Below, piece after piece: positions 18,719-21,224 of a stretch of 32,538 nt of DNA (positions are counted from its first letter, which is position 1; every line of letters starts with the position of its first letter). The DNA is from Candidatus Binatia bacterium (GTDB taxonomy: Bacteria; Desulfobacterota; Binatia; Bin18): NCBI GenBank assembly GCA_022824615.1, contig JAJDZM010000083.1:1-32538 (forward strand), in the 5' to 3' direction. The translations under genes were made by a program, and so were the position numbers. The notes under the pieces are model-generated. The model did not search any database, had not been told where the DNA came from, and saw only the letters and a list, made by a program, of their open reading frames with translations.

Positions 18719-18844
18719 TCAATGTTTCCTTAAAGGAACTGCCTCTCCCCACACCCTTCCCACCGTCTCCCGAACCTTCTTCTCAAATCGCTCAATCAGT
18801 TCACGGTTAGCATTGACCAGGGCAGAGTAATTACGAGTTCTTAA
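18719..18844 (-). pseudogene. Displaced original C-terminal coding segment of hsdS
   Basis: Minus-strand translation LRTRNYSALVNANRELIERFEKKVRETVGRVWGEAVPLRKH*; stop at 18719-18721; in frame with the upstream four-helix-bundle ORF across one TAA (18845-18847). Confidence 0.8.
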
Positions 18845-19298
18845 TTACGAATTACGAAACCGTGTATCCTTGCTCTTTGTGGATTTCTGGATTGATCCGA
18901 TAATTCGGCACAACTCTTCTGCGTCTGGGTAGATGCTATTGAACTCGGTGTCGGACAGGTAATCAGTATCTCTCAGAAGGCGGAGCCAATAGCCGGCTTC
19001 ACGCGCCTCTTTATATGCGATAGACAGCTTGCTCAAAAAATCAGCGCGAGATTGTCCGCCAAGCGCTTCTTCTATGTTGGCACCAATACTCGTTCCAGAG
19101 CGCAACAACTGCTTCGAGAGTACGAATTCCTTTTTTTTCACCGACAAGTGTTGATAGAGCCGCACAACTCGAACAGCAAATGCATAACTTTTTGTCTGAA
19201 CGATGTTTTCAGTCTTCATCAACTTCCCAAACCTTCTGAACAGCTTTGGCCATCTTTTCACGGCAATTCGCAATTTCTAATTCATAATTCCTAATTTT
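18829..19298. mobile_element. Putative mobile four-helix-bundle element with AT-rich inverted flanks, inserted in hsdS
   Basis: Flanks aattacgagttcttaattacgaattacgaa (18829-18858) and aattcgcaatttctaattcataattcctaatttt (19265-19298); left arm matches the reverse complement of the right at about 23/30 by eye; ORF between them. Confidence 0.6.
18845..19219 (-). CDS. Four helix bundle protein (S23 / 23S rRNA IVP-like family)
   Basis: From MKTENIV (ATG 19219): SYAFAVRVVRLYQHLSVKKKEFVLSKQLLRSGTSIGANIEEALGGQSRADFLSKLSIAYKEAREAGYWLRLL is the canonical family signature. Confidence 0.93.
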   Translation of the reverse strand: MKTENIVQTKSYAFAVRVVRLYQHLSVKKKEFVLSKQLLRSGTSIGANIEEALGGQSRADFLSKLSIAYKEAREAGYWLRLLRDTDYLSDTEFNSIYPDAEELCRIIGSIQKSTKSKDTRFRNS

Positions 19299-21224
19299 CT
19301 TCTGGTAGCCCTCAATCTCCGCCACAATTTCTCGCTGCACTTCCAGCGGGGGGAGGGGGATTCGTAGCTCACAGAACCTCGACTTGGGAATCTCTTTGAA
19401 GGTGCCACCGCTCGCCTGGGCTTCCATCGCGGGCACCAGCTTTGTCAACGTGAATGCGACATATTCGGGGAGAATTTTGTTCAGGTCCTTGATAACGACG
19501 TTCTTGAACCCCTGATTGGTCGCCAGCGGTATACGGTTGATAGCGATTCTCCCAATAGTTGCTCGGGTCGAAACGACGACAGAATTTTCTGGAATTAGCT
19601 TCGCTGAGGACTTATTTAAGCCAAGTTCGGTAATGGTACGCTGCGTAGCCCTAATCTCGGTGATGAAATTGGTTGCAGACAAATCAACCAAAGTCGCCCA
19701 AGGAATACTGCCGCTCCAGTATTCCTTCACATTGGATTTCGGGGTGCCACCACTTTCGACACGGAAAAGTTCTGAATCTCCAATAGAAACCAGAGGGAAC
19801 GCGTGATTGTGCACCCCATTCTCTCGATACCGCTCTCCGCTCAACCCGTACTCCCCACCCGCAGCAATCTTCTCCTTTTCGGCTACGAGTCCGTGTGTCG
19901 GTTCGCTCTTCGTGTACTCCGTCCCTGGTTCGGCTGTACCGTCCATCAACGTCGGCTGAAAGTCTCCCTCCGACTCCCCCGCCCGCAGCCGTTCAAGATA
20001 TTCACCAAGCTCCTTCCGCACCTGCGGCAGGTCGTTCTTGTCGATCGCCCGGCGTTGTGCTCCCAGGTCGGAGCCGTCGTTCTCGACCTTGAAAAAGGCG
20101 ATACGGTCGGCCTTCTTGGCCAGCACTTTGTCCAGAATCAGAATGGAAGTCTTGACGCCGGAATAGGGTTGGAACACGCCCGCCGGAAGCGAGACCACGG
20201 CAACCAGATAGTCCTCAACCAGCAGCTTGCGCAGTTGCTTGTACGCGGTCTGGCTCTGAAAAATGATGCCCTCGGGCACGATGATGCCGGCCCGTCCGTT
20301 GGGCGTCAGATGTTCAGCTATGTAGTCCACAAACAGGACTTCGCTGCGCTTGGACTGCACGGAAAAACGATTGTGAGGCCGGATGCCGCCTTTGGGCGAC
20401 ATGAACGGCGGATTGGCCAGAATCACGTCGGCGTATTCGTTCCAGCGGTCCTGGCCGGTCAGGGTGTCGTACTCGAAGATGTGCGGGTCGGCAAAGCCGT
20501 GTAGATACATATTGACCAGGGACAGGCGCACCATGTCGGGTGAGATGTCGTAGCCCTGAAAATTGGTTGCCAGTCGGCCCCTTTCGTCCGGGGTCAGGGT
20601 GCTGTGGCCGTCGGTGTCGGTGTTGGCCTTCAGAATGTGTTTGTACGAAGAGATCGGAAAGCCAGCGGTGCCGCGGGCTGGATCAAGGATGGTGTCATTC
20701 TTTTTGGGGTCAATGACGGCCACGATAAAGTCGATAATATGCCGGGGGGTGCGGAACTGCCCGGCGTCGCCCTGCGAGCCGAGCACGGACAGCAGATACT
20801 CAAAGGCATCGCCCAGGCGTTCGGAGTGGTCGTAGGTAAACTCGTCAATCACCTTGAGAAAGTCGCGCAAGGTCTCGGGGTCGCGGTAGGGCAGAAAGGC
20901 GTTCTTGAAGATGTCCCGGAACAGCGGCGGGATACCGGGGTTCTCCGGCATCCGGGTGATGGCATCGGCGTAGAGGTTGAGAATCTCGTTTCCGCCCAGG
21001 CCGGAGTGCATCAGCTTGGCCCAGCCAAAGCGGGCGAAGTCAGCGGCGAAGAAGGTGCGCGTGCCGCCGAACTCCTCGCTCTCGGCGTCAATGTCATCCA
21101 TGAACTTGTAGATGAGCGCAATGGTAATCTGTTCGACCTGACTCTTGGGGTCGGGCACCTTGCCGACGAGGAGGTCGCGGGCGGTGTCAATGCGGCGTTT
21201 GGTTTCGGTATCAAGCATGACCAT
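19209..21224 (-). CDS. HsdM-HsdS fusion, N6-adenine methyltransferase with one TRD and altered C-terminus
   Basis: N6-MTase NPPF in ILANPPFMSPKGG; motif I region ILDPARGTAGF; C-terminal TRD GGTPKSNVKEYWSGSIPWATLVDL...PLPPLEVQREIVAEIEGYQKK. Confidence 0.9.
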   Translation of the reverse strand: MVMLDTETKRRIDTARDLLVGKVPDPKSQVEQITIALIYKFMDDIDAESEEFGGTRTFFAADFARFGWAKLMHSGLGGNEILNLYADAITRMPENPGIPPLFRDIFKNAFLPYRDPETLRDFLKVIDEFTYDHSERLGDAFEYLLSVLGSQGDAGQFRTPRHIIDFIVAVIDPKKNDTILDPARGTAGFPISSYKHILKANTDTDGHSTLTPDERGRLATNFQGYDISPDMVRLSLVNMYLHGFADPHIFEYDTLTGQDRWNEYADVILANPPFMSPKGGIRPHNRFSVQSKRSEVLFVDYIAEHLTPNGRAGIIVPEGIIFQSQTAYKQLRKLLVEDYLVAVVSLPAGVFQPYSGVKTSILILDKVLAKKADRIAFFKVENDGSDLGAQRRAIDKNDLPQVRKELGEYLERLRAGESEGDFQPTLMDGTAEPGTEYTKSEPTHGLVAEKEKIAAGGEYGLSGERYRENGVHNHAFPLVSIGDSELFRVESGGTPKSNVKEYWSGSIPWATLVDLSATNFITEIRATQRTITELGLNKSSAKLIPENSVVVSTRATIGRIAINRIPLATNQGFKNVVIKDLNKILPEYVAFTLTKLVPAMEAQASGGTFKEIPKSRFCELRIPLPPLEVQREIVAEIEGYQKKIRNYELEIANCREKMAKAVQKVWEVDED

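What the first reader, a model, noticed from the sequence alone, without database searches (positions are those of the whole stretch)
18719..19330. Four-helix-bundle element inserted inside the C-terminal codons of hsdS, with a substitute tail for the host gene
Seen in sequence: HsdM-S ends ...VAEIEGYQKKIRNYELEIANCREKMAKAVQKVWEVDED*. The four-helix-bundle ORF starts inside that end (11-nt overlap, ATGAAGACTGA). Just past the ORF, in its frame after one TAA, the minus strand reads ALVNANRELIERFEKKVRETVGRVWGEAVPLRKH*, a typical HsdS C-terminal helix. So the original 3' end was displaced by about 0.45 kb. The replacement tail (REKMAKAVQKVW) resembles the displaced one (EKKVRETVGRVW), so the inserted DNA appears to carry a mimic that restores the host protein end. 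AT-rich aattacgaatt-type arms flank the ORF in inverted orientation. Knowledge: these S23/IVP-like proteins are known from 23S rRNA intervening sequences and resemble DGR Avd, but their general role is unclear. Inference: this is a mobile element that tolerates in-gene insertion by supplying its own host-compatible coding end.
Basis: partly seen in the sequence, partly recalled or inferred. Interest (0 to 1): 0.85.

Follow-up and report, generated by a model that had tools for sequence, protein, structure and literature searches.

The report
Hitchhiking gene inside restriction-enzyme specificity gene
A small selfish-looking gene of unknown function (S23/IVP family) sits where half of a DNA-specificity gene used to be, and the shortened host gene ends in a matching replacement tail while its old tail lies stranded downstream; the same module recurs in another phylum, and its relatives sit at the very ends of many other genes, which makes the mobility of this old, unexplained gene family testable.

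Summary
An S23/IVP gene (18845-19219, minus strand) overlaps the last 11 nt of a fused hsdM-hsdS gene, lies between imperfect inverted AATTACG-type arms, and is followed by a stranded HsdS end (18719-18823).

The reading needs correcting. Same-genus and distant relatives are two-TRD proteins (CR1-TRD2-CR2). Here TRD2 is gone, the S23 element fills its slot, and the stranded tail is the old CR2 end. The replacement tail matches CR2 in length and register.

The module (tail, S23, arms, then a CR2 stump) recurs in a Pontiellaceae genome, homologous over 546 nt. The tail recurs in about 20 HsdM-S proteins scattered on the HsdM tree; four share contig lengths with S23 proteins. It is therefore a mobile or exchanged module. 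The trick is not S23-specific: other HsdM-S genes carry a Y1 transposase or an uncharacterised gene in this slot, with their own tails.

Across 79 S23 loci the arms are a family trait, and the element sits at the stop codon of an upstream gene in 50 of 68. Tenacibaculum trpD-trpC shows occupied, empty and decayed sites.

How S23 elements move, and what S23 does, is unknown.

The parts
19209..21224 (-). HsdM-HsdS fusion with a single TRD (671 aa)
   Evidence: N6_Mtase 8.5e-45 and Methylase_S 1.1e-24; same-genus two-TRD homologue of 826 aa in G006
19263..19296 (-). 5' arm (AATTAGGAATTATGAATTAGAAATTGCGAATTGC), read in frame as IRNYELEIANC inside the HsdS tail
   Evidence: Inverted match to the 3' arm, 0/5000 shuffles; same arm in Pontiellaceae
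19209..19262 (-). Rest of the substitute C-terminal tail (REKMAKAVQKVWEVDED*) between 5' arm and S23 start
   Evidence: Recurs in P0077 and P0241-P0258; same spacing as CR2; predicted as part of one helix 627-665
18845..19219 (-). S23/IVP four-helix-bundle gene (124 aa), overlapping hsdS by 11 nt
   Evidence: PF05635 5.6e-29, TIGR02436 3.4e-33; solved relative 2rld
18827..18856 (-). 3' arm (CGTAATTCGTAATTAAGAACTCGTAATTAC); encodes the S23 C-terminal RNS*
   Evidence: family-wide CGTAATT enrichment downstream of S23
18719..18823 (-). Stranded HsdS CR2 end (ALVNANRELIERFEKKVRETVGRVWGEAVPLRKH*)
   Evidence: CR2 profile 46.4 bits; 87% DNA identity to a CR2 end in same-genus G002

Best explanation
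This is an S23/IVP insertion element (an S23 gene between inverted heptanucleotide-repeat arms) that forms one module with an HsdS-type C-terminal tail and occupies the TRD2 slot of an hsdM-hsdS fusion gene. The host gene keeps HsdM and one TRD and ends, in register, in a CR2-like helix partly encoded by the element's 5' arm; the old CR2 end is left as a stump behind the 3' arm. Shown: anatomy, two-TRD form in relatives, homologous module in another phylum, scattered distribution of the tail, family-wide arms and position at gene 3' ends. Inferred: the module spreads between hsdS genes by homologous recombination in the conserved CR1 and CR2 segments, the route that also swaps TRD2; the original S23 insertion was an arm-associated event of unknown enzymology, as for S23 elements elsewhere; the one-TRD protein can still pair through its helix, by analogy with truncated NgoAV HsdS.
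For: Same-genus G006 has the 826-aa two-TRD gene in a syntenic place near rpe and hsdR. Window and Pontiellaceae modules align over 546 nt at 72% (E 1e-77) from CR1 motif through tail, S23 and 3' arm, and both are followed by a CR2 stump. The tail recurs in P0077 and P0241-P0258; contig lengths of four tail proteins equal those of S23 proteins (12783, 20589, 4383, 2254165). Tail proteins need 9 changes on the HsdM tree, 5 forced by starred branches. Spacing Q-23-VW is invariant. 79 S23 loci: 151 AATTACG sense upstream against 14 antisense, 167 CGTAATT downstream against 24, background 0.03 per window; stop codon of an upstream gene at the arm in 50 of 68 loci against 6.8% of control heptads, 37 distinct host-gene clusters. 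Tenacibaculum trpD-trpC: occupied L029 and L187, empty L186 with TrpD 94% identical to that of L029, decayed L185.
Against: No empty site was found that differs from the window only by the module; TRD2 is lost as well, so either two changes happened or one replacement. No target-site duplication was seen. Only two tail-plus-S23 loci were read at DNA level; others are linked by equal contig length. The HsdR in this genome lacks an internal 449-aa block with the motor motifs, so the system here may be decaying or the assembly may be wrong. S23 has no known recombinase activity. The S23 tree is too shallow to show that tail-linked S23 genes form one lineage.
Confidence: 0.68

Rival explanations
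1. Independent insertion: an S23 element that itself carries the HsdS-like tail inserts directly into CR2 of hsdS genes, restoring the end each time; TRD2 is lost separately by recombination between the CR1 and CR2 direct repeats.
For: Scattered tail proteins; in both DNA-level loci the 3' arm ends just before the same CR2 codons; S23 elements elsewhere sit at gene ends.
Against: Identical position and homologous left flank in both loci fit exchange of one module equally well; no such tail was seen in the S23 loci outside this group; substitute tails also occur with non-S23 cargo.
Confidence: 0.17
2. Fossil of a decaying system: the operon accumulated an HsdR motor deletion, TRD2 loss and an S23 insertion by neutral decay; the tail is just what remained of an hsdS end.
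For: HsdR lacks 449 aa in frame; CR2 stumps lie behind several hsdS genes.
Against: HsdM-S is open throughout, the tail has exact CR2 spacing, recurs in about 20 protein clusters and is predicted as one continuous helix.
Confidence: 0.1
3. The S23 gene is an accessory component of this kind of type I system, kept for function in the operon rather than as a mobile passenger.
For: Type I loci recur as S23 hosts (L024, L049, L061, L069); the overlapping start suggests coupled translation.
Against: Most S23 loci lie in unrelated operons such as trpD-trpC; nearly all HsdM-S loci read here lack S23 behind them; same-genus relatives have none in this slot.
Confidence: 0.05

Closest known systems
S23/IVP intervening sequences of 23S rRNA (Leptospira, Coxiella and others; PF05635, TIGR02436)
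   Same: Same protein family; ORF between inverted repeats; sporadic distribution. The Coxiella IVS also has heptameric repeats (GACAGAT) just upstream of its S23 ORF (PMC4990558).
   Different: Here the element lies in a protein-coding operon at a gene 3' end, with AATTACG-type arms; not in rRNA, and no RNA processing shown.
Type I hsdS TRD swapping and inverting hsdS loci (PMC7394358)
   Same: Conserved segments flank exchangeable TRDs; recombination in them changes hsdS.
   Different: The slot holds a non-TRD gene with its own replacement tail; no second intact hsdS was seen here.
Naturally truncated HsdS (NgoAV; described in PMC7394358)
   Same: A truncated HsdS can be produced and has its own methyltransferase specificity.
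   Different: NgoAV truncation arises from a variable G tract; here the end is replaced by a module.
Integrative elements that enter gene 3' ends and restore the host gene's end (tRNA and other genes; own knowledge)
   Same: Displaced original end and a replacement end supplied by the incoming DNA.
   Different: No integrase and no attachment-site identity seen; element of about 0.5 kb.
RAYT (Y1 transposase) genes with palindromic flanks (own knowledge)
   Same: Single small gene between palindromic sequences; a Y1 transposase gene is also found in the same hsdS slot (L146, L222).
   Different: Y1 proteins are tyrosine transposases; S23 has no known catalytic domain.

Membership tests
S23/IVP protein family (PF05635/TIGR02436) | Profile score over the curated cut-off | tested here: met
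   100.9 bits (cut-off 33.8) and 114.1 bits (cut-off 24)
23S rRNA intervening sequence | Lies inside an rRNA gene | tested here: not met
   Lies in hsdM-hsdS; no Rfam match in 18600-19500
23S rRNA intervening sequence | Inverted ends able to form a stem | tested here: met
   z -3.9 for the folded arms
23S rRNA intervening sequence | Excised from the transcript by RNase III | not testable with these tools
   No transcript data
S23 elements at gene 3' ends (group described here) | Inverted AATTACG-type arms around the gene | tested here: met
S23 elements at gene 3' ends (group described here) | Element begins near the stop codon of a co-directional gene | tested here: met
   S23 start overlaps the hsdS stop by 11 nt; but here the 5' arm begins about 85 nt inside the gene, unlike most loci
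Transposon | Target-site duplication or transposase | tested here: inconclusive
   No duplication noticed in the printed flanks, no systematic test; no transposase in the element; no clean empty site for this locus
Type I HsdS | Two TRDs with CR1 and CR2 | tested here: not met
   One TRD; 671 aa against 826-913 aa open frames in two-TRD relatives
Type I HsdS | C-terminal CR helix | tested here: met
   Same Q-23-VW spacing; one helix 627-665 in the model, block pLDDT about 60-88 there

The most novel reading that the evidence does not exclude
S23/IVP genes outside rRNA are a distinct, widespread class of mobile element that targets the stop codons of genes in operons. Its arms act as polar translational adaptors: the pure 5' repeat (AATTACG)n is open in all three frames and encodes the heptad NYELRIT, whereas the 3' repeat (CGTAATT)n carries a stop in every frame. 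In hsdS this property let the 5' arm become part of a coiled-coil helix, and the resulting tail-plus-cargo module now travels through the TRD2 slot.
Probability: 0.3. Interest if true: 0.82.

Novelty: new variant of a known kind. Interest (0 to 1): 0.62.

Why it matters
S23/IVP genes have been known for decades from rRNA intervening sequences, with no known role and only a suspicion of mobility. The arms, the preference for gene stop codons, and an occupied/empty/decayed series within Tenacibaculum turn that suspicion into a testable system. The hsdS case adds a way in which non-TRD genes can occupy the exchangeable half of a specificity gene while the host protein keeps a proper end, which could also create one-TRD methyltransferases with new, possibly symmetric, targets.

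Tried and rejected
Viral contigs: no S23 relative; a tail-junction pattern hit only three unrelated loci. Own genome: no second AATTACGAATTACGAA copy and only distant S23 relatives, so no sign of recent within-genome transposition. S23 protein tree: too few columns to show a tail-linked clade. Rfam: no match. Plasmids: S23 relatives below 60% identity, tail query found only matches below 60% identity, annotated as ordinary HsdS. The idea that the 5' arm is stop-free by design was weakened: AATTAGG and AATTAAG variants contain stops, and many host genes end inside the arm. The idea that substitute tails are specific to S23 was rejected because other cargo has comparable tails. Literature searches gave no description of AATTACG-armed S23 elements in the held library; that library is incomplete.

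Full report
What is there. On the minus strand, a fused hsdM-hsdS gene (19209-21224, 671 aa) ends ...VAEIEGYQKKIRNYELEIANCREKMAKAVQKVWEVDED*. An S23/IVP gene starts 11 nt before the end of that stop codon (ATG at 19219) and ends with RNS* at 18845. It is a clear member of PF05635 and TIGR02436; the solved relative is 2rld. Behind it, 18719-18823 reads ALVNANRELIERFEKKVRETVGRVWGEAVPLRKH*, an HsdS end without a gene in front. The element is bounded by imperfect inverted arms, 19263-19296 and 18827-18856, well beyond chance, and is AT-richer than its host gene.

What the gene looked like before. HsdM-S relatives in the phylum and beyond nearly all have two TRDs: TRD1, CR1 (EIVAEIEGYQKVIDGARAVLDNYRPHI...), TRD2, and CR2 (AIVAEIEAEQALVAANRELIERFEKKIQATLARVWGE). 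The same-genus genome G006 has this 826-aa form in a syntenic place near rpe and hsdR. In the window the protein stops after TRD1, TRD2 is absent, and the stranded piece is the CR2 end. DNA homology to G006 stops at 19299 and resumes at 18811. So the module stands in place of TRD2 rather than splitting the last codons.

The substitute tail. It has the same spacing as CR2: 23 residues between the anchor Q and VW in all 120 tails measured, one-TRD and two-TRD alike. AlphaFold2 gives one continuous helix for residues 627-665, with good confidence for the TRD and fair confidence for the helix but poor confidence for much of HsdM (mean pLDDT 65.6, 24 sequences). The middle of the tail (NYELEI) is encoded by the 5' arm itself. 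The tail recurs in P0077 and in P0241-P0258. Four of these proteins have contig lengths equal to those of S23 proteins found independently (12783, 20589, 4383, 2254165), so the linkage of tail and S23 repeats.

A second locus read in full. Pontiellaceae G796 (L144, identical to P0257) has ...EIEGYQEEITNYELEITKCRKKISKTINRVWGEDEEG*, an S23 gene overlapping that end, a 3' arm, and then PPEQALVAANRELIARFEEKIKQTIARVWGEG*. It is homologous to the window over 546 nt at 72% identity. On an HsdM tree the tail-carrying proteins are scattered among two-TRD proteins: 9 changes, at least 5 forced by well-supported branches (quick method). The module has thus moved between hsdS backgrounds several times, with the caveat that hsdM and hsdS can recombine with each other.

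It is not only S23. In same-genus G002 (L100) the one-TRD HsdM-S has another tail (SEIEKHEIAIDDEKRRIQAAVGRVWGEDE), followed by an uncharacterised 446-aa gene, a CR2 stump, a SIR2-like gene and further on a second CR2 stump. In G818 (L146) and G1362 (L222) the tail is (N/K)EIERLKxEIAxQEKNIQ(R/K)S(I/L)ARVWGED, followed by a Y1 transposase gene; G818 then shows a CR2 stump and a second partial transposase gene. CR2 stumps also lie behind L102, L151, L169 and L224. The TRD2/CR2 end of hsdS is thus a place where other genes settle and old ends are stranded. This is why I favour exchange of tail-plus-cargo modules through CR1 and CR2 over an S23 element that carries a mimic by itself; this step is inferred.

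S23 elements elsewhere. In 79 S23 loci from many phyla, AATTACG occurs 151 times in sense and 14 in antisense within 160 nt upstream, and 24 and 167 times downstream, against 0.03 per control window; arms share an exact inverted stretch of 12 nt or more in 75% of loci against 0.5% of controls. In 50 of 68 loci the stop codon of a long upstream co-directional ORF lies within -12 to +30 nt of the first heptad, against 6.8% for control heptads; these are 37 distinct host-gene clusters. 36 of 79 S23 proteins end in NS, the residues that the 3' arm encodes. In Tenacibaculum the trpD-trpC junction is occupied (L029, L187), empty (L186, TrpD 94% identical to L029) or holds a decayed copy (L185), and occupied TrpD proteins such as L029 and L187 end in ...LITN*, written by the arm. 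Hosts include other type I systems (L024 at the end of an HsdM-S; L049, L061 and L069 next to hsdM). A published genome shows the same kind of position without comment: a four helix bundle gene between guanylate kinase and the nicotinate-nucleotide adenylyltransferase gene in Flavobacterium columnare (PMC5524665).

Arms and reading frames. A pure (AATTACG)n array is open in every frame and encodes NYELRIT; its complement carries a stop in every frame. Variants such as AATTAGG break the rule, and many host genes end inside the 5' arm, so a designed adaptor function is only a possibility. Heptameric repeats are also reported upstream of the S23 ORF in the Coxiella rRNA IVS (PMC4990558), with a different sequence.

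Limits. The window has no clean empty site for this module, no demonstrated target duplication, and an HsdR with an internal in-frame loss of 449 aa including the motor motifs, so the system here may be methylation-only, decaying, or misassembled. How S23 elements move is not known. That a truncated HsdS can have its own methyltransferase specificity is reported for NgoAV (PMC7394358); it was not tested here.

Noticed in passing
window 21739-22992 (-): HsdR is 417 aa against about 840 aa in same-genus relatives: an internal in-frame block of 449 aa with the ATPase motor motifs is missing.
   Followed up: partly
window 17693-18715 (-): DUF3644 plus EC042_2821 gene, matching the PADLOC candidate PDC-S19, directly behind the stranded HsdS end.
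   Followed up: no
window 21255-21679 (-): HicA/HicB-like pair between hsdR and hsdM-S; the same slot holds other small genes in G002 (138 aa) and G006 (294 aa).
   Followed up: partly
L100 6293-11230: Same-genus operon with an uncharacterised 446-aa gene and a SIR2-like gene behind a one-TRD hsdS, and two successive stranded CR2 ends.
   Followed up: partly
L146 3478-4884 and L222 from 3568: Y1 transposase (RAYT-like) gene in the same hsdS slot with its own linked tail; L146 carries a second partial copy behind the stranded CR2.
   Followed up: partly
window 17596-17694 and L100 8853-8950, 10965-11063: A dispersed repeat of about 100 bp (81-86% identical) lies near the cargo genes in both genomes.
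   Followed up: no
L227 (G000 contig 177, 3685-4323): The genome holds one reverse transcriptase ORF (PF00078, 8.7e-16); type not determined.
   Followed up: no
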